From positions 29,387,903 through 29,451,902 of the forward strand of contig NC_063152.1 in assembly GCF_020921035.1 (NCBI RefSeq): a stretch of DNA of 64,000 bases, in the 5' to 3' direction. Shown in pieces: positions 29,001 through 59,174 of the stretch; within the stretch, counting starts at the first letter, position 1; every line of letters starts with the position of its first letter. The notes beneath the pieces were generated by a model, which was not told where the DNA came from, ran no database searches, and saw only the letters and a program-made list of their open reading frames with translations. The translations under genes and the position numbers were made by a program. The DNA is from Rhodamnia argentea (Eukaryota > Streptophyta > Magnoliopsida > Myrtales > Myrtaceae).

Positions 29001-29186
29001 CAGATTGAATGAGAAATGTAAAGATACGGAGTAGCAGTTAATTTTATAAAGCATCATACACCAACTGCCTAGGGAGGATTTGGGATGTTTAATGTTCTGT
29101 TCCTGAAACATTGCTTGTTTTTTCTGTTTGTGTTGCTGCAGGAAAGGGATGATTATGCTCTAGAGTTAGCAATGGGGGATGAATAA
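26090..29186 (+). CDS. FdC2: Ferredoxin C2, plastid 2Fe-2S protein
   Basis: Six exons: 26090-26335, 26683-26746, 27440-27528, 28373-28441, 28918-28962, 29142-29186; phases agree and give 185 residues. FdC2 is a chloroplast ferredoxin-like protein with a C-terminal extension, needed in Arabidopsis and rice for normal photosynthesis and chlorophyll levels. The first ~55 residues are Ser/Arg/Ala-rich and fit a plastid transit peptide. The mature part starts near VPVHKVTVHDRQRGVVHEF. Cluster ligands are C101, C106, C109 and C139 (C-x4-C-x2-C-x29-C). The C-terminal extension EVYWLQFGRYFARGPIERDDYALELAMGDE is the FdC2 signature and separates it from photosynthetic ferredoxins. Its last exon has been copied three times at 59190-59430. 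Confidence 0.96.
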
Positions 29187-35887: not shown

Positions 35888-36660
35888 TCGATGCCTTTGT
35901 CTGCATTTGTCCCATTTGGTCCTTGTTACTGAGCAGGTCTCAAATAATCTTTCTGGAACTGGATCAACAATGTCAAAGGTGTATATAGCTGTAAAGTGAT
36001 ACTAGAGTTACTCAGTCTAGCTTACAAAGTGACGTTACAGATTCTAATCTGGGTGAACCCTAGGAATTCCCCCTTTGAACAAATTTTTGTATGCTTAGCA
36101 TTGTTGTTGGTGTTAATAGGAAGCAGCCTTCTCCAGGCCTGCTCCATGAGATTGAAATGTGGGAGTTACGCTGCAATTTGTCAGCAAAAATTTCAGACAA
36201 GTTTTTCAAGCAACCTTACAATTACAACGAACGACATTATCTAATTAAAGGAACTCAGATGGCGATTACGTTACGCCATGGCAGTTATGCAAATTAGTCT
36301 AGCTAGCATGTCAAGTATATTATATTTCTTTTGACAGTAGCTGAAGGAACGTCGTTTTGCCGTCTCTCGGCTTTGCATGCATCTGTACTGTTTATCGAAT
36401 TAGTAAACACCAATAACCAACCTATGCAAATTCCTTTCATGGTTCCTTGGACGTTTTGTCATCCAGCCAACAACAGGTTCAGACAATCTAACGGTCCATG
36501 AGACACCCTCTTCAAATCTCATATTTGAGACTGGTCTGTTCAATATTGCCAGAAAATGCAAGTTACTACTTTGCCACCATCTTGGTTTGCTCTTTTGTAT
36601 TATACAGAGCCACCATCTTGGTATCCTCTTTTGTCTTGTACAGAGTCAGAGTGCGAGTAG
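35888..36660. other. 3' flank of RING gene
   Basis: Includes the 3' UTR. No further gene. Around 36590-36645 a short phrase 'ccaccatcttggt-t-ctcttttgt' is directly repeated. The block to about 36477 is duplicated at the far end of the window. Confidence 0.5.
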
Positions 36661-36712: not shown

Positions 36713-37233
36713 ATGCTTCTTGTTCTTGTGGTGACCTATGTGCAATTCGCGGAGGTTGAAGCACAGAGTTGCTGTGCAAGCCAGAGGGAGGGAACCGCTG
36801 CCCGGCCAATGCCACACGGGTGTCGAGTCGGATTGTTGCATCGAAGGCAAAATGTACCCCGTTTATCGGTTTTCGCCGCTGGTGTCTTGCCACACTAGAG
36901 CCCACCTCACTCTTAATAGCTTTGAGAAGGGAAAAGACGGAGGAGGTCCCTCGGAATGCTACAAGAAGTACCATTCTGACGATTTACCAATTGTGGTACT
37001 GTCCACGGGGCTGGTTCGACAACATGAGCAGGTGTCACCACAACATAACCATTAACGGCAACGGGAGGAGCGTGGTGGCCGTGGTCGTTGATGAGTGCGA
37101 CTCGACTTTGGGGTGTGCCCCGGACCATGATTATCAACCTCCGTGTGATTACGACATCGTTGATGCATCTAGAGCCGTGTGGGAAGCCTTGGGCGTGCCT
37201 AAAGACAACTGGGGATGGATGGACATAACATGA
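36713..37233 (+). pseudogene. Kiwellin / ripening-related protein, frame-disrupted
   Basis: Kiwellins are small secreted Cys-rich apoplast proteins; a maize member inhibits a fungal chorismate mutase. Family motifs appear across all three frames: a signal peptide (MLLVLVVTYVQFAEVEAQSC), then ESDCCIEGKMYPVYRFSP and TLNSFEKGKDGG and YHSDD in a second frame, then WFDNMSRC, TINGNGRSVVAVVVDECDS, DHDYQPPC, IVDASRAVWEALGVP and the tail WGWMDIT in a third. At least two frame changes separate these, so as it stands the gene cannot make a full protein. No intron that would rescue it is evident; an assembly error is the alternative. A TATA box sits just upstream. The gene was single-exon, as usual for the family. 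Confidence 0.8.
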
Positions 37234-39041: not shown

Positions 39042-41754
39042 ATGTCTATCTTTCTCAGAATAACTCTAGCTTCAATTGATCATACACTCCAGAAGATATT
39101 CTCTAAAGTTCATGCAGGCAAGGATATGGCGGCGTCTGCAGACCGTGAGGCTTCAGGGAAAGTTGTAGAGAACGCTCATGAGGAGAGGTTTTCTGGAAAA
39201 TATGTTGAGAAAATCAAGAGGCTTCCAGAGAAAATCTGGGGGATGATGTGGAAAGTGGGTAAGGAAGATCCCAGGAGGTTCATCCATGCTTTGAAAGTTG
39301 GGTCATCTTTGACATTGGTCTCTTTGTTGTACTTGGTGGAGCCGTTGTTTAAAGGGATCGGCCAAAATGCCATTTGGGCTGTGATGACTGTGGTCGTGGT
39401 GCTGGAGTTCACTGCAGGTTGATAGCTAGAATTTTCCAGTTCCTTCGGATTTGTAATGAGATTGTTTTAGCCTAACCGATCATTTTATTTCCCTCATTGA
39501 CAGGTGCAACTTTGTGCAAGGGACTTAATAGAGGATTGGGCACTCTTTTGGCAGGGTCTTTGGCATTTCTAATTGAGTATGTTACAACGAATTCTGGTCA
39601 AGTTCTTCGAGCCGTTTTCATTGGAGGCGCAGTTTTTCTGATTGGTAATTTTTGTCACTCTCTAGTGATGAAACAAATTGTGTTATCCATTTGCAAATTC
39701 CTCTCCAAACACCATGGTCAGATTTTCTCATCACGAGTCTGCTTACAACTTTTCTGCCCTTTGTTGCAATATTTACAGGAGCTACAGCTACCTACATAAG
39801 GTTCTTTCCGTATATAAAGAAGAACTTTGACTACGGAGTCGTGATATTCCTTTTGACGTTTAATTTGATCACAGTGTCGAGCTATCGCGTTCAAAATGTG
39901 TTGAAGATAGCCCACGAGCGCCTCTCCACCATTGCCATTGGGTGCGCCATCTGCCTTTTCATGGCTCTGTTGATATTTCCCAACTGGTCAGGGGAAGATC
40001 TGCATAATTCTACTGTATCCAAGCTAGAAGGCCTGGCAAGATCAATTGAAGGTAATTGGGACACCTCTTATCCTTTTGCGTTGATGCGCTAACAAACACG
40101 TACTCTTCAGCACAAATAACTGAAATTAGACTTTAGTCATAATTATAAGAAGTGTGGTTGACCTTTCTGATCGAGTAAATATTGCTTGCAGCATGTGTTA
40201 ATGAATATTTCAGTGAGGTGAAGCCAGCAGAAGAGGGGAACGAACCAACGGAGGATCGCATATACAAGGGTTATAAGGCCATCTTGGACTCCAAGACTAG
40301 TGATGAGACTCTGGTAATGGTCTTTCAAGGAAACTATATTGATCTTGGATTGACATGAATAAGATGAGACTTTACACGACTATGTGCCGTGAAATTTTCA
40401 GGCACTACATGCAAGTTGGGAACCGAGGCGTAAAAGACACTGTTATATCTCCCCTTGGAAGCAATACATTAAATTGGGAGCCGTTCTGCGCCACTTTGGT
40501 TACACAGTCGTCGCACTACATGGATGTTTGAGAACAGAAATACAGGTATCCTTCAATATGATCACTATTGTCCACCAATGTAGACACCAACCTGGTTATT
40601 AATAGGAGCAGTTTGCAGGTGTTACTTCAATCCTTATCAGATACAAGGTCACTTTTTAACTTTTTTTGCTCCAACACCATTATAGATAGTTGACCTGCAA
40701 AAGTTATTGCTTTCTTCTGTGAAGTTACCTTCCCTTGATCAGTGAAACTTTAACCAATTTCCGAGGAAATGAGACGTATGAGCGACCCTCGATGTATTCG
40801 TCACACATTAAGAAGTGTTAGGAGGAAGTTTTCACTATTGAGATAAAGCATGCCTTTCTAGGTATAATTTTTCTGCTCTTATAAGCAGATTGCAATTTTC
40901 ACTTCATAATTATTCCCAGATCCGTTTACTTGAAATAGTACCAGAGGAACAATAGCAGATCTCCAATTTGTCACATTCATGAGAAAAGAGACAAAGATAC
41001 TATGTTCCTTGTTATTCTCTAGAACTATGGTCCTGTCAATGCATATTGTACGTTGCGATTCTTGTAGTGAACACAGTTTCATGATTCTGAGGATATCTGG
41101 CGGAGGACTAATCTAAATAGTCTTTGGTCTGTTGATTTCTAGACCCCGCTTGCAGTTCGTGCACTCTTCAAGGACCCATGCATTAGACTCGCCAAGGAGG
41201 TACAAAAGGTCTTGATGGAGCTCGCCGACAGCGTGAGGCACCGCCGCCAGTGCTCACCCGAGATACTGTCCGATCATCTCCACGAGGCCTTGCAAGACCT
41301 AAACATCGCAATCAAATCCCAACCGAGGCTCTTCCTAGGTTCAAATGATAACCAAACATCGAACATGCTTGCCCTGGCAGCTGCACAGGCCAGCCAAAAG
41401 AACCACAAAGTCTCATTACCCAGTGTAAAGACGGACAGTTCTGCCTTACTGGAGTGGAGGACCAAAAGGGCTTCCGAGCAATCGAGGGAGAATGAGAGGA
41501 AGTGCCTGAGGCCGCAGCTGAGCAAGATTGCCATCACGAGCCTGGAGTTCTCGGAGGCTCTCCCATTTGCAGCTTTCGCCGCCCTGCTGGTCGAGACGGT
41601 CGCAAGGCTCGACCTAGTGATCGAGGAAGTCGAGGAATTGGGACAGGTTGCATGCTTTAAAGAGTTTAGACCCGACGATCAGATCTCTATCACTTGCGAG
41701 CGCCTTCCCGTGGATGTCTATCACAATCATTTGCCTTCCCATGGAGCAGAATAG
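39042..41754 (+). CDS. Aluminium-activated malate transporter, copy 1
   Basis: Six exons: 39042-39417, 39504-39644, 39779-40051, 40192-40313, 40402-40545, 41143-41754; phases agree, 555 residues. ALMT (PF11744) proteins are anion channels of the plasma membrane or tonoplast that pass malate and sometimes chloride; members act in root Al tolerance, guard cells and vacuolar malate storage. Visible marks: [22 protein letters not shown] and [18 protein letters not shown] in the membrane half (about six helices), [22 protein letters not shown], the WEP motif in [10 protein letters not shown], and a long soluble C-terminal half with [18 protein letters not shown]. Start chosen at 39042; an internal ATG at 39126 is the start left in copy 2. 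Intact. It cannot be placed in a physiological class from sequence alone. Confidence 0.93.
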
Positions 41755-42346
41755 TTAGACGGTCATTAAGACGGAGACGCATAGAAAATTACGTATTAGA
41801 GAGCTGGCCATGGATGATTTGGCTTGGTATCATATCTTTACCTAGAGTGAGATTCATTTATTGGGATCATGTTCTTCGTGGATCACTGATATTGAAAACC
41901 TTTTCATTAGCACGGAGTGCCTAGAGAAACTATTTCGGGGGAACGCGGTTGCTTTCACCTGGCAAAACGTCCGACAATTCTAAATCTACCTTATTTTTTA
42001 AATGTATCGATCACTCATAATCAACTAGATAACAAAGTTTGTCGATCCTATTACGGGTTCGCACTTGGGTGCACCCTGTTAGGTCCTCGGTGAGCATGGT
42101 CATGGATTAATCTAATCACGTCATGTCGATGCTAGCAATTAATCTAATCCGTCATAATTGGTGATAGATGGGCGCACCTTCGATTGGACCATCCAAGCGC
42201 CGGTCCTTCCGTATAGCCCCTTTTACCAACATCACACCCTCTTTCTAATTTCAACATTTGGGGTATTTCATTCGGTACGATTTCGACACCACTTTCGCAG
42301 ATTCATGTCTGCAGCATGGCTTAAAAATCTCACCAAACCAAAGAAA
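41755..42346. other. 3' flank of ALMT copy 1
   Basis: Noncoding. The same sequence follows ALMT copy 2, but there it lies beyond the Copia insertion at 53024-53650. By eye the two differ by about 4%. Confidence 0.7.
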
Positions 42347-42349
42347 AAC

Positions 42350-42720
42350 TTGATGGCGGGCTGATTTGTATGCCGTATATTTCAAGTGATGAACAGGCTA
42401 CTGATATTCTGACCAAGGGACTGCAAAGAAGGCAATTTGACCACCTTGTTTGCAAGCTGTCTATGGAAGATATCTTCAAGCCAGCTTGAGGGGGACTGTT
42501 GGAATGTGTAGAAATAGCTGTCATAGCTATTAATTACTGTTAGAGTTAGCTACAGCTACTAATTAGTGATTAATTGTCATCTTGATATAATCCATTTGTT
42601 AGGTGCCAACTACCTATTAAATATGTCTTATCTCTTATTGGGTTCCTGATATATATAAATAGAGACTAATTGTAACTTTTGTAAACAAATGAATAAATAC
42701 ATCTGTTCTTTCTCCTACAA
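42350..42720 (+). mobile_element. 3' end of a Copia element with one LTR
   Basis: A fossil fragment in plus orientation. It has the end of a Copia RNase H region (reads DEQATDILTKGLQRRQFDHL, then stops), a polypurine tract near 42487-42496, and one LTR of about 223 bp starting TGTTGGAATG at 42497 and ending near CTACA at 42719. The rest of the element is missing, so it is heavily truncated. Its family differs from the 45356-53018 element. It sits exactly at the junction between ALMT copies 1 and 2. Confidence 0.85.
42652..42661 (+). promoter_or_regulatory. TATA box inside the LTR, facing ALMT copy 2
   Basis: TATATAAATA within the LTR, 105 bp before the ALMT copy 2 ATG and in the same orientation. 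LTRs carry their own promoter, and copy 2 has lost the promoter seen in copy 1. Use as the copy 2 promoter is inference. An ATG at 42689 opens a short frame that overlaps the copy 2 start in another frame and could reduce translation. Confidence 0.5.
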
Positions 42721-42765
42721 CATACACTCCAGAAGATATTCTCTAAAGTTCATGCAGGCAAGGAT

Positions 42766-45479
42766 ATGGCGGCGTCTGCAGACCGTGAGGCTTCAGGGAA
42801 AGTTGTAGAGAAAATATGTTGCAACGCCCATGAGGAGAGGTTTTCTGGAAAATATGTTGAGAAAATCAAGAGGCTTCCAGAGAAAATCTGTGGGATGATG
42901 TGGAATCCCAGGAGGTTCATCCATGCTTTGAAAGTCGGGTCATCTTTGACATTGGTCTCTTTGTTGTACTTGGTGGAGCCGTTGTCTAAAGGGATCGGCC
43001 AAAATGCCATTTGGGCCGTGATGACTGTGTTCGTGGGGCTGAGGTTCAATGCAGGTTGATAGCTAGAATTTTCCAGTTACTTTGGATTCGTAATGAGATT
43101 GTTTTAGCCTAACCGATCATTTTATTTCCCTCATTGACAGGTGCAACTTTGCGCAAGGGACTTAATAGAGGATCGGGCACTCTTTTGGCAGTGTCTTTGG
43201 CATTTCTAATTGAGTATGTTACAACGAATTCTGGTCAAGTTCTTCGAGCCGTTTTCATTGGAGGCGCAGTTTTTCTGATTGGTAATTTTTGTCTGTCTCT
43301 AGTGATGAAACAAATTGTGTTATCCATTTGCAAAATTCCTCTCCAAACACCATGGTCAGATTTTCTCATCACGAGTCTGCTTACAACTTTTCTGCCCTTT
43401 GTCGCAATATTTACAGGAGCTACAGCTACCTACATAAGGTCCTTTCCGTATATAAAGAAGAACTATAACTATGGAGTCGTGTCATTCCTCTGGATGTTTA
43501 ATTGGATCACAGTGTCAAGCTATCGTGATCAAAATGTGTTGAAGATAGCCTACAAGCGCCTCTCCACCATTGCCATTGGGTGCGTCATCTGCCTTTTCAT
43601 GGCTCTGTGGATATCTCCTAACAGGTCAGGGGAAGATCTCCATAATTCTACTGTATCCAAGCTAGAACGCCTGGAAAGATCCATTGAAGGTAAATGGAAC
43701 ACCTCTTGTCCTTTTTCGTTGGTGCGCTAACAAACACGTACTCTTCAGCACAAATAACTGAAATTAGACTTTAGTCATAATTATAAGAAGTGTGGTTGAC
43801 CTTTCTGATCGAGAAAATATTGCTTGCAGCATGTGTTAATGAATATTTCAGTGAGGTGAAGCCAGCAGAAGAGGGGAATGAACCAATGGAGGATCGCATA
43901 TACAAGATTTATAAGGCCGTCTTGGACTCCAAGACTAGGGATGAGACTCTGGTAATGGTCTTTCAAGGAAACTATATTGATCTTGGATTGACATGAATAA
44001 GATGAGACTTTACACGACTATGTGCCGTGAAATTTTCAGGCACTACATGCAAGTTGGGAACGGAGGCATAAAAGACACCGTTGTATCTCCCCTTGGAAGC
44101 AATACATTAAATTGGGAGCCGTTCTGCGCCACTTTGTTTACACAGTCGTCGCACTACATGGATGTTCGAGAACAGAAAAACAGGTATCCTTCAATATGAT
44201 CACTATTGTCCACCAATGTAGACACCAACCTGGTTATTAATAGGAGCAGTTTGCAGGTGTTACTTCAATCCTTATCAGATACAAGGTCACTTTTTAACTT
44301 TTTTTGCTCCAACACCATTATAGATAGTTGACCTGCAAAAGTTATTGCTTTCTTCTGTGAAGTTACCTTCCCTTGATCAGTGAAACTTTAACCAATTTCC
44401 GAGGAAATGAGACGTATGAGCGACCCTCGATGTATTCGTCACACATTAAGAAGTGTTAGGAGGAAGTTTTCACTATTGAGATAAAGCATGCCTTTCTAGG
44501 TATAATTTTTCTGCTCTTATAAGCAGATTGCAATTTTCACTTCATAATTATTCCCAGATCCGTTTACTTGAAATAGTACCAGAGGAACAATAGCAGATCT
44601 CCAATTTGTCACATTCATGAGAAAAGAGACAAAGATACTATGTTCCTTGTTATTCTCTAGAACTATGGTCCTGTCAATGCATATTGTACGTTGCGATTCT
44701 TGTAGTGAACACAGTTTCATGATTCCGAGGATATCTGGCGGAGGACTAATCTAAATAGTCTTTGGTCTGTTGATTTCTAGACCCCGCTTGCAGTTCGTGC
44801 ACTCTTCGAGGACCCATGCATTAGACTCGCCAAGGAGGTACAAAAGGTCTTGATGGAGCTCGCCAACAGTGTGAGGCACCGCCGCCGGTGCTCACCCGAG
44901 ATACTGTCTAATCATCTCCACGAGGCCTTGCAAGATCTAAACATCGCAATCAAATCCCAACCGAGGCTCTTCCTAGGTTCAAATTATAACCAAACATCGA
45001 ACATGCTTGCCCTGGCAGCTGCACAGGCCAGCCAAAAGAGCTACAAAGTCTCATTGCCCCGTGTAAAGACGGACGGTTCCGCCTTACCGGAGTGGAGGAC
45101 CGAAAGGGCTTCCGAGCAATCGAGGGAGAATGAGAGGAAGTGCTCGAGGCCGCAGCAGAGCAAGATTGCCATAACGGGCCTGGAGTTCTCGGAGGCTCTC
45201 CCGTTTGCAGCTTTCGCCGCCCTGCTGGTCGAGACGGTCGCAAGGCTCAACCTAGTGATCGTGGAAGTCAAGGAATTGGGACAGGTTGCATGCTTTAAAG
45301 AGTTCAGAACCGATGATCGGATCTCTATCACTTGCGAGCGCCTTTCCATGGATGTTGAAGGATGCATAATCCGATCTAATACATACTCAACAAACAGCGG
45401 AAACATGCCCAATAGATCATCAGATTTACCGATCGACGAAGATACATCACGAGAACGTACCTTATTGAACACCGATTAG
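42766..45479 (+). CDS. Aluminium-activated malate transporter, copy 2, altered ends
   Basis: Tandem copy of the gene at 39042. Exons: 42766-43054, 43141-43281, 43417-43689, 43830-43951, 44040-44183, 44781-45479; frame stays open for 555 residues. Homology to copy 1 begins at 42721, so the first 28 codons and promoter of copy 1 are missing. Exon 1 has a small in-frame insertion (KICC) and a five-codon deletion before NPRRF. Exon 3 carries many replacements, including new Trp and Arg in membrane segments (FLWMFNWITVSSYRDQ). The last exon is interrupted by a Copia insertion after codon DV: the native 11-residue tail is replaced by 40 residues read from the LTR, ending at 45479. Whether it makes a working channel is doubtful; the WEP motif remains. 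Confidence 0.8.
45351..45355. repeat. Target-site duplication, left (GATGT)
   Basis: GATGT immediately before the left LTR; the same five bases follow the right LTR at 53019-53023. In ALMT copy 1 the site occurs once ('ccgtggatgtctatc'), confirming the insertion point. Confidence 0.93.
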
Positions 45480-45737
45480 ATGCCCTTTGCGATCTCGGAG
45501 TTTTTCTCTGTCAAACGACAATCGACGATGGGAGGAGCGTTCTGCGTTTTCTATTTTCTTGAAATGACATAATGAAGTAACAGGGGGAAGAACGAAGGAG
45601 AGTACGTCGGTTATTGACGTAAAACCAACCAACGTGATTCTTCACGTTTGAGCGGATAACTGCTCACCGGGGTGTGGTTGCTTGCATGGGCGCACACCGT
45701 ATCTCCTGTGGACCCCACTTTAATATTTAGTCTAATA
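45356..45737 (-). repeat. 3' LTR of the Copia element
   Basis: 382 bp, matching 52637-53018. On the element's strand it starts TATTAG and ends CTTCA, so its ends are TA...CA rather than TG...CA. It supplies the new 3' coding end of ALMT copy 2. Confidence 0.93.
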
Positions 45738-45751
45738 CCTCCCACTCGCCC
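45738..45751 (-). other. Polypurine tract of the Copia element
   Basis: On the minus strand a purine-rich GGGCGAGTGGGAGG directly precedes the 3' LTR. This is the expected plus-strand primer position and supports the LTR boundary at 45737. Confidence 0.85.
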
Positions 45752-46840
45752 ATGTAGGGCAAACAACTCCTATTTGTCCACGGAGGACTAATAACTAAAC
45801 TTTTTATCTTCGCAAAATTCATATTGGCAAATAACCCGTGCGACCAAGATACATCGAGAGCTCATTGTCATATATCCGTTGGGAGTATATGACAGCTCTA
45901 AAATTGGACATAAAAAGAAATGAATTGTATGTTGTACCCTAGATCGATCAGTCACATATAAATTTCTCATTAGATCTCATTTTAAAATTGACATATTATA
46001 TTCACAATTACGATCACACCAAATAATCATAATTGACCGGTCTGTGAATATAATTCATAATGTGACTTAAAACTCCAAATCAATCTTCCTCATTCATTAG
46101 ATCTCTCAATCTCGGTTCAGCTCGCTTTTCTAGAAATGTCCCTTTAGATCGAATCAATTTCATGACCATAGGCCACACCCTAAGATAGCAAACACTAAAT
46201 AGAGACCTTGAGAATAATGAAGAGTCATGAGGGTACAAAAATGAGGAATTTTATCCTCGAGAGTCTCACACGGCACGAAGGAGTTGAGATCAAAACTCTT
46301 GCCTACTCTCATTGGTCGATAGTGCATACGTAATATGAAATACGTATTACGGTATGTTCTCCTTCCCTATGGAGCGTATATCTTTCTATTTTAATACCGT
46401 ACGGATGCTCATCTTGACACACTCAGTGTCCAACTTGAGTTCACGTAACAACTCCAGCCAAGAGTTTTCCATCAGAACTCTCATCTGGCATTTAAGACAG
46501 ATAAAGCGAAATGTGTGGGTTATTTCACTTCCGGACATTTTAAGTAATAAGTCCTCATCTTAACATCATGTTAAGGCGGTATTAGTATTTTAAGCTTGAG
46601 CTCTCAATTATCACCTAGATAATAAGCTTAAAATTGTCTCATCTCTCTTTACTACATAATAAATAGAGGCGGTTACCCGTGTGAGTGGGCTAACCTCTCA
46701 TCCGTCCGACATATCTTTTCAACGTATAGTGCACCAAGCATTAATATGCATGAATATCAAATAAACTTATAGACTTTAATATTAATAAACAACATCATCA
46801 ATTATTGACGTTCAGGGAAAAATTACAAATATTCAATACA
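45752..46840 (-). other. Copia 3' untranslated internal region
   Basis: About 1.1 kb between the RNase H region and the 3' LTR without recognisable coding sequence in either strand. It is longer than in typical Copia elements. Confidence 0.6.
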
Positions 46841-49800
46841 TTAACCTCTACGCAGTCCTAGAGTTTTTATATGACCAAAGAAAGCATCTCTAGGAATTGG
46901 CTTTGTCATGGGATCTGCTAACATTCTATGCGTATATATATACCGTAGGTTCACTTCCTTTCGTGCTTCCATGTCCTTGACATAGTTATACTTAATGTCT
47001 ATGTGTTTGGTCTTACTATGAAACTTAGGATCCTTAGTATAAGCCATTGTTGCTTGACTATCACAATAAACCTTCACAGGTTTTGCAGCATCTCCCGTAA
47101 CACCCAAATGATCCATAAATCTTCTAAGCCAAACACCTTCTTGTGCTGCCCCCGATAATGCCACGAACTCGGCTTCCATGGTGGATAAAGCTATACACTG
47201 TTGTTTCTTCTTGCTCCACGATATGGCGCCATTATTCGGTAAGAATACATTTCCGTAAGTGGATTTTCTCTCATCCAAATCTCCTCCCGGTCAGCATCGG
47301 TGTAGCCCTCTAGGTGCGGATCACTTCCTTGATAAGTTAGCGAGTAATCGGCAGTTCCTTTCGGATACCTCAAAATTCTCTTAACGGCAATTCAATGTGC
47401 TTGACCTGGATTGGATTGGTATCTACCGACCAATCCAACTGCATAACAAATATCAGGTCTTGTACACATCATAGCGTACATAAGACTTCCAATAGCACCG
47501 GCATATGGAATTTTTTCATACGTTCTTGCTCTTGTGGAGTCTTAGGACACATTCTTCGGCTCAACCCATTACCTTTTGCAATAGCAGTATCAATGGGTTT
47601 GCAATCTTGCATACAAAATCGTTCGAGAATTTTATTGACGTATGTCTCTTGCGAAAGAGATAATGACATTTTCGAACGATCTCTCGAAATCTTAACTCCG
47701 AGAATGTATGTAGTTTCACCCATATCTTTCATTTCAAAATTAGAAGATAGCCAACTTTTGATTGTCTTCACAAACTCCATATTATTTCCAGCAATCAATA
47801 TATCATCAACATATAATGATAAAATTACAAAGTGACCTTTGGACCTTTTGATATATACGCAATTATCTTCATTAATTATTTCAAAATCATATGTCACTAT
47901 GGCATTATTGAAGCGTATATACCATTGTCTTGAAGAGCGCTTAAGGCCATATATCGATCTCAAAAGTCGACATACTTTTTGTTCTTGGCCCTTTTTAACA
48001 AACCCAACGGGTTGTTCCATGTAAATCTCTTCATCTAATTCTCCATTGAGAAAAGCAGTCTTTATATCCATCTGATGTAATTCAAGATCCAAACTAGCCA
48101 ATATTGTTAGAATGAGGCGAATCGAGGTAAATCTTACCACAGGAGAAAAAGTATCTTCATAGTCGATTCCTTCATGTTGGTTATATCCTTTCGCCACAAG
48201 GCGTGCCTTATATTTCTCAATTGAGCCATCAGCCTTGCGCTTTATTTTGAAAACCCGTTTGTTCCCAATGGCTTTGCGTCCTTTTGGAAGATCAACCAGT
48301 TCCCAAACTTGGTTTGATTTCATTGACTCCATCTCTTCTTTCATCGCTTTCATCCATTTTTCCTTATCGGGGCAAGATAGAGCCTCATTCACATTTCTTG
48401 GCTCATCTTCATCCAATGGAGCGATCATGAAAGCTTCCCCTTCAATTTCAAAGCGTCGTCGAGGAATGCTTTTGCGACCGGTTCGTCGTGGAGAAGATTG
48501 TACCAAGGGTACTTCGTCCTCTAATACGCTCCCACTCGGACTAGATAATGGCATTGATTCATCAAGTGGTTGCAATGGAGATTGGTTTGTTTTCAACTCC
48601 CCACCTCTTACATTGCTTCCACTTGGATCATTATTTCCAACAATCTCATTATCTTGATCCAATGTCTCAAATAGGGAACAATCTTCACCTATTTTGCCCT
48701 TTCTTGGAAATTCATTCTCTAAGAATGTGACATCTCGTGATTCAAATTCGGTCACATTTCCACTTTCTTGCTCATCTATGAACACATATCCTTTTGAGTG
48801 TTCTGAGTACCTTATGAAGATACTCTTTTTGCCTCTTGTCCTAATTTTCCATATTTATGTGAGGACTCATGAGTATAGGCAGCACAACCCCAAGGTTTGA
48901 GAAAGCTTAAATCGGGTTTTCCACCTGTCCACAATTCATATGGGGTAGAAGTGACTGATTTGGAAGGCACTCGGTTAAGTACATAGACAGCAGTTAATAA
49001 AGCATCGCCCCAAAAGGCAATCGGTAAATTAGCTTGTGCCATCATGGACCTAACCATTTCAAGTAGGGTTCTGTTTCGTCTTTCGGCAACACCATTTTGT
49101 TGCAGAGTGTATGGAATAGATAACTATCTATCTATTCCCTTTTCATCACATAGATTTCTGAACTCATCGGATAAATATTCTCGACCTCGATCGGATCTCA
49201 AAGCTTTTATTTTCTTATCTAACCGATTTTCCACTAAGGTCATAAATTTCTTGAAGCAACTAAATGCTTCTAATTTATGAGATAGCAGATAGACATATCC
49301 ATATCGAGTATAATCATCAATAAATGTGATGAAATAAACAGCACCATGCCTTGCCCTAACATTCATCGGGCCACAGATGTCGGTATGGATTAATTGCAAT
49401 GGGAATTCAGCTCTTGTCTCTTTTCCAAATGGCTTTCTAGTTGTTTTTCCCATTAGGCAATGCTCACAAGTAGGCAATTCAACTTTCTCAATATTGCCTA
49501 ATAAGCCATCTTTGGCTAATGTATTCATTCTTTGTTGGCCAATATGACCAAGTCTAGCATGCCATGTATTCAAATCATTCTCATTGGAACTAGAAGATGC
49601 AAATAGGGAATAACATACATTCACACTAGCATGTTCAATATCTAATACAATAAAGCCATCCGTGAAATAACCAGAACCATAAAACGTTGTTCCTAACAAC
49701 AAATCCACACCATTATTGTGAAAATTCATACTAAAACCAAGTTTAACTAATACCAACACAGAGACAAGATTTCGACGAATCTCCGGAGCGTAGAGAACAT

Positions 49801-51257
49801 CATGTAGAAATAAAGTGCATCCACCACGCATGATAAGTTAGCAAGTGCCAATTCCTTTCACTTCTGCTCTGGAATTGTTTCCTACATAAATCCATCTCGC
49901 TCCACTTGGAATTCGTCGAAATTCCACAAACGTATTTCGATCTCTGGCTACATGGTCTGTGGCTCCCGAGTCTACAGTCCACGAAGGATGAGATTCGCTT
50001 AAAAATACAGAACTTGATACATAACAAACACTTTTAAGTGTGTTAAGGGTTTCTACCTTCTTCGGCTCGCCACAGTCGCGAGCGAAGTGACCCTTCTTAC
50101 CACGGTTGTAACATTTCATCCTCGAAATGTTCTTCTTCATGGGATGTTTTCCTTTTCCATGCTTCTCAAACTTTGGTTTCTTGCCGGATGGTTCGACTCT
50201 TTTGCCTGTCCACTTCTTGAACTTTCCAAGATGCTTGCGCTTGAAGCCCGAAGTTCCATGTGAGCTAGATCCAGTAACATATACATCGGATTGTATCTTA
50301 GCCGCCGGAAGGCGGTCCTCCTCTAGCTCCAAATGGCGCACAACATCCTCAAAGGTTGTGACATTCACATTGTGGGTCGGGTTCACCTTCATGTGTTCCC
50401 AATTGTGAGGCAAAGAGCGAATTACAGCCTGCACTTGTTGTTCATCGGACAATACATGTCCAGCATCCTTTAGCTCACTAATCATGTTCGACATCTTCCT
50501 CAAATGTTACTTTATATTCTGCCCATGTGGCATTTTATAAGTGTCGAACCCGATTGTAAGCCGCCTCGGCTTAGTGACAGAAGTCCGACCAAATCTAGCC
50601 TTCAATGCATCCCACATGTCTTTAGCGTTTTCATGCTGCCTGAACTCCCTCATGATGTCATTATCCATACTACTCAACAACGTAATGCGAGCAGTTGAGT
50701 TCTTTTTCTTCCAGGCAGCGAAGGCTTTTTTGTCTCTTATGTGCTGTGCAGTATTACCATCCTCTGGCTCTGTCATGGTCGGGTTAAGAGCTTCCAGTGC
50801 CTCTAGTTCTTCAAGCACATACTGGATTTTCATACTCCAGATTTCATAATTTTCGCCATTCAATTTCTCACCCTTGTTGAGCTCAGCAACAATATTCTTA
50901 GATGCCGTTGTCATAGTATCTTAGTATAACATTTAGCACGTGTTTAAAGTCTATTTGTATGCAACAAATGCAATCATATTCATGCATCTTGATTATACTG
51001 GTATATAGTTTCAAAAAAGAATCTAAAATCAACAGTTTACTAAGTTCCCCATCATCGTCCGGATTTTCTTATCTAAAACCAATACCAATACAATCATCAA
51101 TTTGTGTTCATCGTAGAGTTACTAAAACTTGTTAACACTCCCACTCGAAATATATACACATAACATAATATATATACAGAAATCATTAATACAACAATCA
51201 CAAGTCCCTAAAAGTCTCCTAAGATATACGGAAAAGGAACTAGCTAAAAATAAAAGT

Positions 51258-51812
51258 CTAAATATAATAACGTGTGATCCTCCTAGCTCCAGTTACAACA
51301 TGAGCATATGTAATTTCCTTGGCACAAGGAAAAGAATAATTAAGGTCTCGAGGAGGATTATGAATTAAATCGGAGGCCAAAATCAACTCCTTTGGACAAA
51401 ACCTTTGAGGACCCTTGCCTTTACGCCAGGGCGCATTCTGTCTGCGCCAAGACACATTCATTGCAAGCGATGACGTCTTCATCGCTCCGATCCTTATAAA
51501 ATCGTGTAAGAAATGTAGCACGGATTTCTTATATGTGGCAACATCATTCCACCACGCGCTATTCATTAAACCATGCCATTCTACGGGTATAGTGTTCTGT
51601 AGTGCATAAAATGCATCTACTGGAGTCATTTCTTGTCTAGCCCATACGATTTCTTGGATCATTTCGTTGACCTTAATAACATGGGTTATAATGTCAGAAG
51701 TATTATCCCATTTATAAAGACCCAATATTGTAATCTTTTCCCTTAGAGCTTGCCGAGCTTCAGCTCTCCTTGGCCTTTGGGGTGTTCTCGCATTTCGTCT
51801 TACCCATTGCAT
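51258..51812 (-). other. Extra open frame in the Copia leader, 184 codons
   Basis: An uninterrupted ATG-initiated frame between primer site and gag. It starts MQWVRRNARTPQRPRRAEA and includes YKWDNTSDIITHVIKVNEM, IPVEWHGLMNSAWWNDVATY and SVLHFLHDFIRIGAMK. Composition looks protein-like, with regular hydrophobic spacing and many Trp. I do not recognise the family; a distant gag-like or movement-protein-like origin is only speculation. It is part of the fossil element and not part of its usual gag-pol set. Confidence 0.5.
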
Positions 51813-51956
51813 TGTTCTCGCAACGAATGCAGAATACAAATGGATTACGAAAATCCAATTATTTTGTAACTATTATGAACATATCATAACAAATAAAATA
51901 ATAGGTAAAACAAGACCCCTTAGTATTGACCAACAATACCTTTTTTTTTTTTTTTT

Positions 51957-52016
51957 TGGGTCAACGATCAAAGTCAACGGGTCAACGGTCAACCGGCGCG
52001 GGTCAAAGGTCAAACC
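51957..52016 (-). promoter_or_regulatory. Cluster of W-box motifs in the Copia leader
   Basis: Within about 60 bp the plus strand has five GGTCAA and one AGTCAA, which read TTGACC/TTGACT on the element's strand. These match the WRKY-factor W-box. A similar cluster is in the leader at 63115-63180. Confidence 0.6.
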
Positions 52017-52623
52017 GGGTCGGGTCCGAAACGGGCTCGGGTCGCATGCCGGTTTTAATAAAAAAAAACGAAATGGGCTGGGTTTATTAAAGAAAGTGGG
52101 TCGGATCATTTTTTTTTTAAACAAAAGTGAGACTGGGCTGGGTGTTGGGCCGGATCTGGCCCAACACGCTGCGGGCCGCGGGCGCGCGCAGCCCGGGCCC
52201 TCCACGTGCGCCGCACGCAGCGCCCCCGGCGGCGCATGCCGGCGTGTGGGCCGCCGTCCGGCATCCTCCGGCGACCAAATTTTCGCCAAAATTTTCGTCT
52301 CTTCGAGACGAACACGATGATATATTCATAACTCAAAAATGGCGAACAAAAATGGCATAAAAAGGGACGAAACGCCACGACCTCGCGAGACTCCGCCCCG
52401 TCGCGACGCGTGGCGCGCATGCGGCGGCATGTGGCGGACCCTCGGGGCCGGCGACCACTCAAAACGATCGTATCGACGAGCCCGTTTTAATGGTATGTTC
52501 AATTTACTATTTTGACGAACAAATCATAATCAAAAGGCTATGAACAGTAACTTCGCGATTAGGGTTAAAAATCTTCAAAACGTACCATATCAACACAAAA
52601 CGATCGGGAATCAAGTAACACAT

Positions 52624-52636
52624 GCTCTGATACCAA
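52624..52636 (-). other. Primer-binding site (initiator tRNA-Met type)
   Basis: Minus strand reads TTGGTATCAGAGC next to the 5' LTR, the usual Copia primer site pairing with the 3' end of initiator methionine tRNA. This fixes the element's orientation. Confidence 0.9.
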
Positions 52637-53018
52637 TGAAGGATACATAATCCGATCTAATACATACTCAACAAACAGCGGAAATATGCCCAATAGATCA
52701 CCGGATTCAGCGATCGACGAAGATACATCACGAGAACGTACCTTATTGATCACCGATTAGATGCCCTTTGCGATCTCGGAGTTTTTCTCTGTCAAATGAC
52801 AATCAACGATGGGAGGAGCGTTCTGCGTTTTCTATTTTTTTGAAGTGACAGAATGAAGTAACATGGGGAAGAACGAAGGAGAGTACGTCGGTTATTGACG
52901 TAAAACCAACTAACGTGATTTTTCACGTTTGAGCAGATAATCGCTCTTGGGGGTGTGGTTGCCCGCATGGGCGCACACCGTATCTCCTGTGGACCCCACT
53001 TTAATATTTAGTCTAATA
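52637..53018 (-). repeat. 5' LTR of the Copia element
   Basis: 382 bp, same length as the left LTR, about 94% identical. It is followed by the GATGT duplication at 53019-53023. Confidence 0.93.
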
Positions 53019-53650
53019 GATGTCTATCACAATGATTTGCCTTCCCATGGAGCAGAATAGTTTAGACGGCCATTAAGCGGGAGAGGCATAGAAAATTACG
53101 TATTAGAGAGCTGGCCATGGGTGATTTGGCTTGGTATCATATCTTTACCTAGAGTGAGATTCATTTATTGGGATCATGTTCTTCATGGATCACTGATATT
53201 GAAAACCTTTTCATTAGCACGGAGTGCCTAGAGGAACTATTTTGAGGGAACCCGGTTGCTTTCACCTGGCAAAACGTCTAACAATCCTAAATCTACCTTA
53301 TTTTTTAAATGTACCGATCACTTACAATCTGCTAGATAACAAAGTTTGTCGATCCTATTACAGGTTCGCACTTGGGTGCACCCTGTTAGGTCCTCGGTGA
53401 GCATGGTCATGGATTAATCTAATCACGTCATGTCGATGCTAGCGATTAATCTAATCCGTCATAATTGGTGATAGATGGACGCGCCTTCGATTGGACCATC
53501 CAAGTGCCGGTCCTTCCGTATATCCCCTCTTACCAACATCACACCCTCTTTCTAATTTCAACATTTGGGGTATTTTATTCGGTATGATTCCGACACGACT
53601 TTCGCAGATTCATGTCTGCAGCATGGCTTAAAAATCTCACCAAACCAAAG
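53019..53650 (+). pseudogene. Displaced 3' end of ALMT copy 2
   Basis: Sequence from 53019 continues the last exon of ALMT copy 2 (native tail codons, stop near 53059) and its 3' flank, matching 41739-42346 after copy 1. It is separated from its gene by the 7.66 kb Copia insertion and is no longer translated with it. Confidence 0.88.
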
Positions 53651-54266
53651 AAAACGCGTACTCGATTGGAAGAAACAAGTCAACAAAGATAATAATTAGA
53701 GATCGTGAACCTTGCGAAGTAGTAAGCACCCACCCCAGACAGATTTTGGCGGCCACTTTTCTGGTCCCAAAACCTCGGTCCAGTTTGACCTCCCTAAGAA
53801 ACACCACTGCTGTTACCAAGGTCAAAGAACGTGTAGACTTGTCTTAAGCAGCCATCTGTCCCGCGCTTGCTGGGAAAAAGCAGTACTCTAGGAACCTGTC
53901 CCAGGTAAAATTGCTTCAGATGCGTTTTAGTATGTTCCACGATCATTGACCCGTGTCTTCCCACTACATGAAGAATATTAACAGTCTTCTCGAAATGCTT
54001 GTTAACGTACAATCAGTACGATCTGTAGATTAAAAAAAAAAACGGGGCTACTTTGGATTTTAAATTGACCAATGAGGTATGAATATGTTGAACATTTTTT
54101 TCCATTTAAGTGTCGGCGAAATAAGGGTCTCTAGCTCCTTTACATATGAGTGCAACAACAGATGTTCAAAGAGAAATCGAATTAGTCTTTTGACCAGCTG
54201 GGAAGTTTTCTCAGAAAAAAAGTGGAAAAGAACATTGTGGGTAAATCAGTGAGTTTCAGATTGCAA
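53651..54266. other. Upstream region of ALMT copy 3
   Basis: Single-copy-looking sequence after the end of the tandem duplication. No gene and no convincing TATA box. It should contain the copy 3 promoter. Confidence 0.5.
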
Positions 54267-57091
54267 ATGGCAGGGAGTTTCTGTTATGAGAAATCAAATC
54301 TCAGAGTTTTTGCTGAGAAAGTGCTGAGATTTCCAGGTGAGGTGGGTGTTACGATGTGGGAGATGGGCAAAGAAGATCCAAGAAGAGTGATCCACTCAAT
54401 CAAAGTTGGTTTGGCTTTGACATTGGCTTCATTGCTGTGCCTGTTGGAGTCACTCTCTCAAGGGATTGGCCAAAATGCCATCTGGGCTGTCATGACTGTT
54501 GTTGTCGTCCTTGAGTTCACTGCAGGTAACTTCAAACTTAGCAAAACATAAAATACAATGAAATGATCATTGCTGATCTGGGCATTCGAATTTTTGTGAA
54601 CATGTGTGGGGCTCTTGCAGTTGAACTTTCTTCCCATTTATCTTGTTTTTTTTTTTTTTTTATACCTTCAGTTGAAGAGAATGTCTATATGCATCTGAAA
54701 CGCCAAGATCAGAAAGATTTTGTACCAGTAATACATCTAGGACAGATTCTGGAAATTAAGTTCTTCACTAGTTATATACGACATTAAAGCCGGGAATATT
54801 GTTGTCACTCTTTCCATTGAATCACTTGACTTATTGTTGGTATGACAGGGGCTACACTATGTAAAGGGCTGAACAGGGGCGTTGGGACGCTGTTAGCAGG
54901 ACTATTCGCACTCTTTGTTGAGTATCTTACGGCAGATCGGCCTATGCCCAGAGCAGTGGTCATGGGATGGACAGTTTTTGTCATTGGTGAGTGCCAAGTA
55001 TAAGGCATATTCTGAGTCATTGTCGAGTGGCCTCAAACTAAATTATGCAGTTTAGCAGATCCCAAGCTCAGTCGTCACTTGTTAACATTTCAAATTAGAC
55101 ACTAAACCAAAGGATTTGATACCGATTATAGATCATCCTTTGTTACTCAGGTATTTCATCAAGTCGATGTTTAACATGCTAGCAAAACAGCCCATGCAAT
55201 TTACTAGGGGTCTATATTGCCCAGTGCAATCTTTTTCCAATCTTCTTTTCCTGTTTCGAGCCAGAGTATGTCTCTTTTCTCACTAAGCAGGGGTGCTGCG
55301 TTGTGAATGTCACAGGAGCTGCAGCTACCTACATGAGGTTCATTCCCATTATAAAGAAGAATTATGACTACGGGGTCATGATATTCATTTTGACCTTCAG
55401 TTTGATACTAGTGTCCAATTACCGCATCGACAATACAACAAAGATGGCGAGAGACCGCTTCTACACTATCGCAATTGGTTGTGGAATATGCCTTTTCTTG
55501 AGTCTGCTCGTCTTTCCAACCTGGTCAGGTGATGACCTCCATAAATCCACAATAGCCAAGCTTGAAGGACTAGCACAATCTGTAGAAGGTATGATATGCA
55601 TCTTTTGGTTTCTGCTTGCATTCTTGCGAAATGGTTCAATTCAACTGAAGTGGGTTCCTCACAGCTTGTGTTGGGGAGTACTTTGGTGATGACCAGATGA
55701 AAGAAATCCAAGACGAATTGTCGAAGGATTCCATCGACCAAAACTGCATCAAAGTATTGGATTCCAAGTACACTGATGAAACTATGGTAATGATCACTTG
55801 GTTTCGTGACCCTCAATTCGGGATCCAAAAAAACCAATATTTAACTTTTCTTGTTGCAATTTTGCAGGCCTTATATGCAAGTTGGGAGCCGAGATACCGA
55901 GGGAACTGTTACAAATCTCCGTGGCAGCAGTATGTGAAGTTCGGAGTTGCTCTACGCCGTTTTGGTTACACGATTATGGCTTTACATGGTTGTTTGCACA
56001 CCGAAATCAAGGTATTGATAATCAATTCCTATTGGAGCTATCATCAATATGACAAATGTTTTCTGAAGTAGCCGTGGCTATGACATCACATGCGCAAATC
56101 TGTGTCCTGTAGAGTTAACGGTCAATAGCCCAACAATTTAGATGTTTTTTTAAAGAGCTAGGCAAATCATTGATAGGGATATTCACTCCTACAAGATGCA
56201 ATACTTGCATATCAGATCAAAGTAAAGAATTTCCACTTTCTTGTTAGAGACCCTAGTGTAGATTATTTGACAGAAGTTCTACCAAATTGTTACCTATCAT
56301 TGTTGCGTCATTTCTGCCTTGAATAAAATCGAAAACTAAACTCAAATTGTTAGTCTATCTCTTCTTAGGGAGTCTGTTGTATACATTCTTTTCTCTAACT
56401 AGAGCGCACTTCTAGACACGTAGGATCATTTTCGTCCCGTTGAAGGAACATTCCCTGATTATTAGATTTGATTATGTTTCTTCCTTGATAATAAACTCTT
56501 GAAATGTAAATGTAATGTTGCTAGACTCCACCATCTGTACGTGCTCTCTTCAAGGACCAGTGTACCAATTTAGCTGGAGAGGTATCGAACGTGTTGGTGG
56601 AACTTGCTAATAGCATGAGGAATCGCCGCCATTTTTCTCTGGAAATTCTCTCGGCTCATCTCCATATAGCTTTGCAGGACCTCAACACCTCACTACAGTC
56701 CCAACCACAGATTCTCTCAGACTCGATGAACAGAAAGGACTCCAGAATCTCTCATACGACAAGCTTCGATGCCAATTCTTCTCCATTGCTTGAGTCAAAA
56801 ACTGCAAGACCTCCTGAACAAGTGCATGGCATTCAGAAGGTGTTAAGGCCACAGAGGAGTAAACTTGTTATAGCTAGCCTCGAGTTCTCCGAGGCACTTC
56901 CTATATCTGCATTTGCTTCTTTGCTAGTAGAGGCCGTGGCTAGGCTTGATCATGTTATTGAGGAAGCCGAAGAACTGGGGAGAATAGCTCAGTTCAAGGA
57001 GTATAAAGCGGGTGAGGACGTTGTTGTGACACTTGAAAGAACAAAATCGAACTTCGTTGAGAATCATTTCCCTCCGTCGGGAACAGAATAG
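54267..57091 (+). CDS. Aluminium-activated malate transporter, copy 3
   Basis: Six exons: 54267-54525, 54849-54986, 55316-55588, 55665-55786, 55868-56011, 56525-57091; phases agree, 500 residues. It shares the exon plan and family motifs with copies 1 and 2: [94 protein letters not shown]. Protein identity to copy 1 is moderate, so this is an older paralog, with a shorter N terminus and C-terminal half. I start at the ATG in MAGSFCYEKSN; the frame is open upstream but without another ATG. It appears intact and is the best candidate for a normal, functional member of the cluster together with copy 1. Confidence 0.92.
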
Positions 57092-57341: not shown

Positions 57342-57575
57342 TTCAGTGGGGAGAGACATGTGAATTCCAGGTAGAGCATCAACCTCTGTGAGTCTCTCTC
57401 TCAACCTCTCAGTAAGTAACTCCAATCTTGAGAGGGCAAAGAGCAATTTTCCAAGAAGCCAAACCTCTTCAATAACAAACCAAAAGTGGAATGTGAAGAT
57501 TCAGCTTAATATAGCCCTTCACAGTCCCACTGCCTAATAATGAATCACATATTAACTTGTGAGATATTAGCTTCA

Positions 57576-59072
57576 ATGGATCATGTCCTTCAGAGAATGT
57601 GCTATGAAGTTCGTGCAGGCGAGGATATGGCCGTGGCAGCAGACCGGGGGCTTTAGGGAAGCTGTAGAGAACACTAATGAGGAGAGGCTTCCTGAGAAAT
57701 CTGCTGTGAAAATCAAGAGGCTTCCAGGGAAAATATGGGGATGATCTCGAAAGTGGGTAAGGAAGACCCCAAGAGCATTCCTTGAAAGTCGGGGCCTCTT
57801 TGACATTGGTCTCGCTGTTCTGTCTAATGGATCCATTGTCCAAAGGGTTTGGCCAAAATGCCATTTGGGCTGTGACTACGGTGAACTTGGTGCTGGAGTT
57901 CTATGCAGGTTGGTATCTAGAATTTTCCATTTACTTTGGATTCGTATTGAGCTTGTTTTCACCTCACAGGTAATTTTGTTTTCCTCATTGACAGATGCAA
58001 ATTTGTGCAAGATAATAGATTATTGGGCACTCTTTGGCAGCATGCTTGGCACTTCTAATCGAGTATGTTACAAAATATTTTGGTCAGGTCGAGTGATTTC
58101 GTTGGAACTGCAGTTTTTCTTATGGGTAATATTCAATCTCTTACTAATGATGATATTCAATCTTCATAGATGTCTCTAGCTATTTTCTTACCTAGTGTTG
58201 TTATAGCATCTATAACTGCCTTTGCTTTAGTTCCCATCAAGTTATGTGCAATGGTCGTGCAAAATATCTGGTATTACGTGCAATGGTCGTGCAAATATAG
58301 GAGCTACAGCTACCTACGTGAGGTTCTTCCCGTATGTAAAGAAGAACTTCAACAATGGAGTCCTGGTATTCCACTTGACCTTTAATATGATCACAGTCGC
58401 AAATATAGGTATCCTTTTGATATGATCATTGTTTCCCACCCAAGAAAATATCCTCCTAGGCCTTAGGACGAGCAATTTGCAGGTTTTATTTCAATATAAT
58501 CTAAACTGTCTTCGCTGTCTATTTCTAGACCCCACTCGCAGTCCGTGCACTCTTCAAGGACCCATGCATCAGGCTGGCCAAGGAGGTAGGCACCGCCGCC
58601 ACTGCTCGCCCGACGTACTATCTGATCATCTCCACCAGGCCTTGCAAGAACTCAAGACCATGATCAAATCCCAACCTAGGCTCTTCCTAATTCAAATGAT
58701 AGCCAAACACAGAACACGCTTGCCCTGGCAGCTGCACAGGCCAGCGAAAAGAACCAAAAGGCCTCTGATGTCTCATTGCACCATGTAAAGTCGGACACTT
58801 CTCTGGAGTTGAGGACCAAAAGCGCTTTGGAACAATCACGGGAGAATGAGAGGAAGGTCCAGAGTCCGCAGATGAGCGAGATTACCATCACATCCCTGGA
58901 GTTCTCAGAGGCACTCCCTTTCGCTGCTTTCCCCACCCTGCTGGTTGAGACGGTCACCAGGCTCGACCTAGTGATCAAGGAAGTCAAGGAATTGGGACAG
59001 GTTGCAGGCTTTGAAAAGATTAGACCCAATGATCAAATCTCTATCACATGCAAGCGCCTGCCGTCCCACTGA
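57576..59072 (+). pseudogene. Decayed ALMT, copy 4
   Basis: A fourth copy, most like copy 1, including its promoter region (57341-57575). The start MDHVLQRMCYEVRAGEDM is soon followed by a stop, and exon 1 has frame changes. Recognisable pieces: [31 protein letters not shown] (about 57782-57870), a degenerate second exon near 58000-58100, a fragment of exon 3 (TYVRFFPYVKKN frame near 58310-58350) and part of exon 6 (RHRRHCSPDVLSDHLHQAL, later [23 protein letters not shown] to 59072). Exons 4 and 5 and most of exon 3 are missing. The direct repeat copy at 58146-58300 interrupts the exon 2-3 region. Not functional. Confidence 0.88.
58146..58300. repeat. Direct repeat, right copy
   Basis: Second copy of the 57186-57341 segment, placed where the ALMT exon 2-exon 3 intron should be. 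It joins directly to 'ggagctacagctacct', the start of exon 3. This suggests a duplication into the decaying gene. Confidence 0.75.
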
Positions 59073-59174
59073 TCTGCCTTTCCATGGAGCAGAATAAGTA
59101 GATGATCATTAAGCAGGAGAGGCAACGATTAGGTATTAGAGAGATGTTTTGCACCTTGTCATCAATGGTGCTTG

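What the first reader, a model, noticed from the sequence alone, without database searches (positions are those of the whole stretch)
39042..45479. ALMT tandem pair: exons diverged, introns 4 and 5 nearly identical
By hand alignment, intron 4 (88 bp) is identical and intron 5 (597 bp) differs at one site between copies 1 and 2. Exon 5, lying between them, differs at about 7 of 144 sites. Exon 3 differs at about 24 of 273, exon 4 at about 6 of 122 and exon 6 at about 31 of 572. Silent changes in exons are also far above the intron rate, so selection on the protein alone does not explain it. Possible causes: exon-directed exchange through a cDNA of another paralog, a mosaic of conversion tracts, or an assembly artefact such as polishing with RNA reads. 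Introns 1 and 2 and the 3' flank show about 3-4%, so the contrast is sharpest in the second half of the gene.
Basis: seen in the sequence. Interest (0 to 1): 0.72.

Follow-up and report, generated by a model that had tools for sequence, protein, structure and literature searches.

The report
Gene-conversion patch in duplicated plant gene
Two neighbouring copies of a plant malate-channel gene differ by about 5% almost everywhere except one intron that is practically identical, most simply because a short stretch was recently copied from one gene to the other; this is an ordinary process that happened to fall on an intron.

Summary
The interpretation has to be turned round: exons are not unusually diverged. 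Exons (82/1570) and noncoding parts outside introns 4 and 5 (41/995) do not differ significantly (p=0.22), and the copia element in copy 2's last exon has LTRs 23/382 apart. The pair is an old tandem duplicate at about 5%; intron 5 is the outlier. A scan finds one significant identical block, 40542-41087 (0 of 1000 shuffles); the intron-4 block is within chance (375 of 1000), though other tests leave a weak signal. The most divergent block crosses the exon 3/intron 3 border by 33 bp. Of 19 ALMT sequences compared, 18 are nearer to copy 1 and 1 ties, so no exon donor was found. Copy 2 looks decaying: upstream region replaced, exon 6 cut, polarised amino-acid changes 27 against 6. Best explanation: one recent gene-conversion tract of about 0.55-0.63 kb over intron 5. 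Primate L/M opsin genes are the known parallel for exon-sparing conversion.

The parts
39126..41755 (+). ALMT copy 1: six exons 39126-39417, 39504-39644, 39779-40051, 40192-40313, 40402-40545, 41143-41755; 527-aa intact ORF
   Evidence: Pfam ALMT 2.1e-166
42766..45355 (+). ALMT copy 2: exons 42766-43054, 43141-43281, 43417-43689, 43830-43951, 44040-44183, 44781-45355; reading frame open up to a copia insertion in exon 6 and continuing in it to a stop at 45479
   Evidence: Pfam ALMT 1.2e-136
40542..41087 (+). Copy 1 side of the identical block (546 bp, 0 differences); up to 41169 (628 bp) if the single difference at 41088 is a later mutation. Starts 4 bp before the end of exon 5 and covers most or all of intron 5. 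Inferred gene-conversion tract
   Evidence: 0 of 1000 shuffles; 0 of 20000 permutations
44180..44725 (+). Copy 2 side of the same block (to 44807 for the longer version)
40302..40423 (+). 122-bp identical run over intron 4; within chance expectation for the background
   Evidence: 375 of 1000 shuffles reach it
39827..40084 (+). Most divergent block (28/258), from exon 3 into the first 33 bp of intron 3
   Evidence: 13 of 1000 shuffles reach it
45356..53018 (-). Copia-type LTR retrotransposon inserted in exon 6 of copy 2; LTRs 45356-45737 and 52637-53018, 23/382 differences, K80 0.063; 5-bp duplication GATGT on both sides
   Evidence: LTRs and duplication; RVT_2, rve and copia gag matches on the minus strand
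53019..53655 (+). End of exon 6 and 3' flank of copy 2 beyond the insertion, aligning to about 41713-42345 downstream of copy 1's coding end
42346..42720 (+). Tail of another LTR element (end of a copia-like polyprotein plus LTR) that stands in place of the upstream region of copy 2, 45 bp before its ATG; identity of this element read by eye, not searched
   Evidence: sequence; copy 2 homology to copy 1 starts at 42721
57342..59146 (+). Degenerate ALMT copy M, used as outgroup; keeps only the two ends of intron 5
54267..57091 (+). ALMT copy 3, a more distant tandem relative; ends set by eye

Best explanation
Copies 1 and 2 are an old tandem duplicate (~5% apart) of an ALMT gene. Shown: copy 2 carries most of the polarised amino-acid changes and is cut in its last exon by a copia insertion; its upstream region is replaced by what reads as a retrotransposon tail. 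Inferred: copy 2 has been a decaying gene for much of its life, so its exons diverged at close to the neutral rate. Inferred: recently, a double-strand break repaired from the neighbouring copy transferred one stretch of about 0.55-0.63 kb between the copies by non-crossover interlocus gene conversion, erasing intron 5's differences; the one difference left arose later or marks the tract's edge. Intron 4's identity and exon 5's seven differences need no separate event: both fit the background. That the tract lies on an intron is either coincidence (about 2-4% of placements) or reflects purifying selection, if copy 1 was the recipient, against tracts importing copy 2's damaged exons. The direction of transfer is not shown.
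For: Exons 82/1570 vs noncoding outside introns 4 and 5 41/995, Fisher p=0.22; intron 5 has P about 3e-10 at that noncoding rate. Only one significant low-divergence interval, 40542-41087 (gain 23.3; maximum of 1000 shuffles 13.1); the second, over intron 4, is reached by 375 of 1000 shuffles. Copia LTRs inside copy 2 are 23/382 apart, which argues against copy 2 being a recent duplicate (LTRs may mutate faster than the gene; not measured). Where the outgroup M retains the ends of intron 5, each copy differs from M at 30 of 119 sites, against 82 and 95 of 561 in exon 6, so that part is not intrinsically slow. Polarised by M, silent changes are 6 on copy 1 and 6 on copy 2, amino-acid changes 6 and 27; 37 of 82 exon differences could not be polarised. 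Tract size fits published estimates, most 50 to several hundred bp in non-plant data sets (PMC3924818, passages seen).
Against: A label-rotation test of the exon/intron contrast over the gene gives 54 of 2614 (0 of 2615 with the reversed map); from exon 3 on, 53 of 1976 (0 of 1977 reversed). With intron 5 removed it is still 56 of 2017 (77 of 2018 reversed), so a weak residual contrast remains; from exon 3 on without intron 5 it is 115 of 1379 (162 of 1380 reversed), and with introns 4 and 5 both removed 306 of 1929 (216 of 1930 reversed). A two-state HMM is preferred to one rate by AIC (1027.1 vs 1055.2) though barely by BIC (1057.6 vs 1061.3), and it calls intron 4 low (mean posterior 0.88). 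Segments other than intron 5 are themselves heterogeneous (chi-square p=0.021; 0.30 without exon 3), so older exchanges may underlie the background. Only 60 of 2130 gene-body placements of a 546-bp tract (109 of 2720 with flanks), and 32 of 2048 of a 628-bp tract, are as intron-pure. Copy 2's reading frame has no stop or frameshift before the insertion, more intact than expected for a long-dead gene.
Confidence: 0.78

Rival explanations
1. Selection-shaped conversion of the opsin type: several conversions hit the gene, and selection removed those that homogenised exons, leaving introns 4 and 5 identical and exon 5 as an island of divergence.
For: Exon 5 differs at 7/144 between 0/88 and 1/597; all 7 differences change amino acids; residual contrast without intron 5 is 56 of 2017 rotations. 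The same pattern is documented for L/M opsins (PMC3213168 and PMC3924837, passages).
Against: Intron 4 is not significant by itself. Seven of seven amino-acid changes is unremarkable when 111.5 of 144 sites are nonsynonymous (sites; by hand about 0.17). Copy 2 has lost residues that are the same in every paralog aligned there, such as W214 and P284, and its upstream region, so a protected second function is doubtful; selection would have to act through copy 1 alone.
Confidence: 0.13
2. Assembly or polishing artefact: true intron 5 divergence was erased, or exon differences were written in, by read mis-mapping.
For: No reads could be examined; the method of this assembly is unknown.
Against: No N in the window; exon differences include states shared with outgroup M on both sides; exon-like divergence continues into intron 3 and into the 3' flank beyond a 7.66-kb insertion, which RNA reads would not be expected to cover; the whole-genome search with intron 5 returned two full-length matches, the two copies themselves.
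Confidence: 0.06
3. Exon-directed exchange: copy 2's exons were overwritten from a cDNA of another paralog while its introns stayed those of a young duplicate.
For: [quoted passage not shown]
Against: Of 19 ALMT sequences compared, 18 are closer to copy 1 and 1 is tied. Polarised silent changes are shared equally between copies. The divergent block crosses into intron 3. LTR and 3' flank divergence speak against a young duplicate.
Confidence: 0.02
4. Recent duplication followed by accelerated exon evolution, as reported for snake venom genes.
For: Ka/Ks 0.87 overall; amino-acid changes concentrated in copy 2.
Against: Silent sites (5.8%) and 3' flank (29/590) are as diverged as amino-acid sites, and LTR divergence is 23/382, so the duplication does not look recent; many changes strike conserved residues, which looks like decay.
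Confidence: 0.01

Closest known systems
Interlocus (non-allelic) gene conversion between tandem duplicates
   Same: One sharply bounded near-identical block of about 0.55-0.63 kb in a pair otherwise about 5% apart; size within the published range (most estimates 50 to several hundred bp, PMC3924818, passages).
   Different: Seen in one assembly only, so direction and population frequency are unknown.
Intron homogenisation in primate L/M opsin genes
   Same: Introns nearly identical while exons stay apart; in gibbons conversion tracts lie mostly within introns (PMC3213168, abstract and discussion passages; PMC3924837, passages).
   Different: There both genes work and selection keeps the exons distinct, across several species; here one copy looks decaying, one tract suffices, and no selected difference is known.
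Accelerated exon evolution in snake venom toxin genes
   Same: Exon differences exceed intron differences (listing and abstract starts of PMC2711939 and PMC2474615 only; intron conservation there is recalled).
   Different: Here silent sites and 3' flank are as diverged as the amino-acid sites, so exons are not shown to be accelerated above background.

Membership tests
ALMT (aluminium-activated malate transporter) gene family | Match to Pfam PF11744 over the whole domain | tested here: met
   Copy 1 E 2.1e-166 over profile 1-471, copy 2 E 1.2e-136 over 7-471
Interlocus gene conversion tract | Identical run longer than chance between paralogs, flanked by normal divergence | tested here: met
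   546 bp; 0 of 20000 permutations, 0 of 1000 in scan
Interlocus gene conversion tract | Block is not intrinsically slow-evolving | tested here: inconclusive
   Where M retains intron 5 (119 sites at its ends) each copy differs at 30, so the ends are not slow; the middle of the intron could not be tested
Interlocus gene conversion tract | Orthologs in a related species are more different in the block than the paralogs are | not testable with these tools
   No related plant genome was on hand (the genome has no relatives here)
Opsin-type exon-sparing conversion | More than one intron homogenised, exons between them not | tested here: inconclusive
   Intron 5 significant, intron 4 not; residual exon/intron contrast 56 of 2017 rotations without intron 5
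Opsin-type exon-sparing conversion | Both copies functional with a selected difference | tested here: inconclusive
   Copy 2 lacks the upstream region of copy 1 and the end of exon 6, and shows 27 vs 6 polarised amino-acid changes; expression and transport not testable
cDNA-mediated exon exchange | Divergent tracts end at exon borders | tested here: not met
   Most divergent block runs 33 bp into intron 3
cDNA-mediated exon exchange | A donor paralog closer to the altered copy | tested here: not met
   18 of 19 ALMT sequences closer to copy 1, 1 tie; an extinct or unsampled donor cannot be excluded

The most novel reading that the evidence does not exclude
Introns 4 and 5 were each transferred as units between the copies, for example because one copy had lost them by recombination with its own cDNA and regained them from its neighbour when the loops in a heteroduplex were filled in, leaving exon mismatches untouched. 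That would give intron-exact homogenisation with diverged exons.
Probability: 0.03. Interest if true: 0.7.

Novelty: new member of a known kind. Interest (0 to 1): 0.22.

Why it matters
It is a clean example of a single conversion tract in a plant tandem pair, and a warning that 'introns more alike than exons' can arise from one tract landing on a long intron in a pair whose second copy is decaying. If relatives showed repeated exon-sparing conversion, it would be a plant counterpart of the opsin case, with a dying copy threatening its working neighbour.

Tried and rejected
Exon-specific donor: 19 ALMT sequences from this genome were compared with both copies: 16 rows, one of which (C3b) mixed two neighbouring genes; one search split those two and added the two short fragments on C2 and C5 first left out, giving 19. 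Coverage varies from 162 to 1402 coding sites. None is nearer to copy 2; 18 are nearer to copy 1 and one (C8c, 252 sites) is tied. The genome search that found them reports lower bounds. Intrinsic conservation of intron 5: not seen where testable, by comparison with M. A mobile element in intron 5: the whole-genome search with intron 5 returned only the two copies (that search skips very common words). A separate tract at intron 4: not supported by the scan, though HMM and rotation tests leave a weak signal. Recent duplication with accelerated exons: disfavoured by LTR and 3' flank divergence. The 1.48-kb array on contig C7 as donor for exon 6: its pieces are closer to M (92-94%) than to copy 1 or 2 (about 81-88%), so not a donor. 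Species identification by a paper search for assembly size gave nothing usable (8 of 57 papers listed). A paper search combining ALMT and gene conversion returned one paper, on another gene family judging by its title and abstract start; another, asking for three of four terms among tandem duplicate, gene conversion, 'introns more' and ALMT, returned one paper on MATE transporters.
Full report
Setting. The window is a stretch of contig C3 of a 346.66-Mb, 74-contig genome. It carries a cluster of ALMT genes: copy 1 (39126-41755), copy 2 (42766-45355), copy 3 (54267-57091), a degenerate copy M (57342-59146), and copy 4 about 3 kb outside the window. Copies 1 and 2 both match Pfam ALMT over nearly the full profile.

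Observation. Copy 2 also has a 12-bp insertion and a 15-bp deletion in exon 1, both in frame; M has the copy 1 state for both.

What is the background? Copy 2 continues beyond a copia-type element inserted in its last exon (45356-53018, 5-bp duplication GATGT). Its 3' flank at 53019-53655 aligns to that of copy 1 with 29/590 differences (34/639 over the longer alignment). The element's LTRs differ at 23/382 sites, K80 0.063. Silent exon sites differ at 20.5/352 and amino-acid sites at 59.5/1169. Exons together (82/1570) and noncoding parts outside introns 4 and 5 (41/995) do not differ significantly (p=0.22). The pair is therefore best read as an old duplicate at about 5%, and it is intron 5 that is out of line, not the exons. 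The background is not quite uniform: without intron 5 the segments still differ (chi-square p=0.021), which disappears when exon 3 is set aside (p=0.30).

How many unusual blocks? An interval scan finds one significant low block, 40542-41087, with no difference in 546 bp; no shuffle of 1000 reached it. With that removed, the next low block is 40302-40423 over intron 4, which 375 of 1000 shuffles reach. The highest block is 39827-40084 with 28/258 differences (13 of 1000 shuffles); it runs from exon 3 into the first 33 bp of intron 3. Results against the single-tract view: rotating the exon map over the gene reaches the observed contrast in 54 of 2614 positions (0 of 2615 with the map reversed), and from exon 3 on in 53 of 1976 (0 of 1977). 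Without intron 5 it is 56 of 2017 (77 of 2018 reversed), from exon 3 on 115 of 1379 (162 of 1380), and without introns 4 and 5 306 of 1929 (216 of 1930). A two-state HMM beats one rate clearly by AIC (1027.1 against 1055.2) and slightly by BIC (1057.6 against 1061.3), and calls intron 4 low with mean posterior 0.88. So intron 5 is certain and intron 4 is at most suggestive.

Is intron 5 simply conserved? M retains only the two ends of intron 5; over 119 aligned sites each copy differs from M at 30, while in exon 6 the copies differ from M at 82 and 95 of 561. The intron evolves normally where this can be seen; its middle could not be tested. The genome search with intron 5 returned only the two copies.

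Which copy changed? With M as outgroup, silent exon changes are 6 on copy 1 and 6 on copy 2, amino-acid changes 6 and 27; 37 of 82 exon differences could not be polarised. Against the paralogs, 46 codons with an amino-acid difference leave copy 1 with the commoner state, 6 leave copy 2 with it and 4 are tied (sums of the per-exon tallies); copy 2 has lost residues that are the same in every paralog aligned at that position, such as W214 and P284. Copy 2 starts 45 bp upstream of its ATG directly after a retrotransposon tail (the tail was recognised by eye). Its reading frame nevertheless has no stop or frameshift before the copia insertion, so it may have decayed only slowly or been under some constraint early on.

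Is there a donor of exon sequence? Of 19 ALMT sequences compared, 18 are nearer to copy 1 and 1 is tied; none is nearer to copy 2. A tandem array on contig C7 carries pieces of about 100 bp like exon 6, but these are M-like. Together with the block that crosses into intron 3 and the equally diverged 3' flank, this speaks against cDNA-directed exon exchange and against polishing with RNA reads. An extinct or unsampled donor cannot be excluded.

Mechanism. The best reading is one recent non-crossover conversion of about 0.55-0.63 kb between neighbouring copies, over intron 5. Of gene-body placements of a 546-bp tract, 60 of 2130 would be as free of exon (109 of 2720 with flanks; 32 of 2048 for a 628-bp tract). 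That is compatible with coincidence, given that the case was picked for this pattern, and equally with selection against tracts bringing copy 2's damaged exons into copy 1. Direction is not shown and remains open.

Comparison with what is known. Tract sizes of 50 to several hundred bp are usual in the data sets reviewed in PMC3924818 (passages). Introns homogenised by conversion with exons kept apart are established in primate L/M opsins (PMC3213168, abstract and discussion passages; PMC3924837, passages). In Tigriopus GOT1 paralogs, islands of divergence persist amid conversion; in the pair with a partly broken copy the divergence lies in the introns, the opposite of the pattern here (PMC3728101, passages). 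The plant RPP8 family shows intergenic exchange, though only at a low level between its tandem duplicates (PMC6771003, passages). No paper on ALMT gene conversion surfaced in two searches, which does not show that there is none. This is a new example of a known kind, of modest interest.

Noticed in passing
contig C7:274000-350500 (L062, L063, L064): Tandem array of about 1.48-kb units, roughly 90% alike; 10 pieces of about 100 bp in the fetched parts resemble ALMT exon 6 and are 92-94% identical to degenerate copy M.
   Followed up: partly
29081-30184 with 59350-60415; 34682-36480 with 60452-63103: Older segmental repeats, about 80-90% alike in pieces, on either side of the ALMT cluster, suggesting that a larger unit including an ALMT gene was duplicated before copies 1 and 2 arose.
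   Followed up: no
57185-57338 and 58144-58298: A 155-bp stretch downstream of copy 3 recurs at 92% inside intron 2 of degenerate copy M.
   Followed up: no
42766-43054: Copy 2 exon 1 has a 12-bp insertion that resembles nearby sequence and a 15-bp deletion, both in frame.
   Followed up: partly
43417-43689: Copy 2 exon 3 shows three separate leucine-to-tryptophan changes (TTG to TGG), at codons 170, 174 and 209 of copy 1 numbering.
   Followed up: no
36769-37230: Open frame with a kiwellin (KWL1) match upstream of copy 1, covering only the end of the profile.
   Followed up: no
33058-34710: 551-codon open frame with a PIR2-like helical domain match.
   Followed up: no
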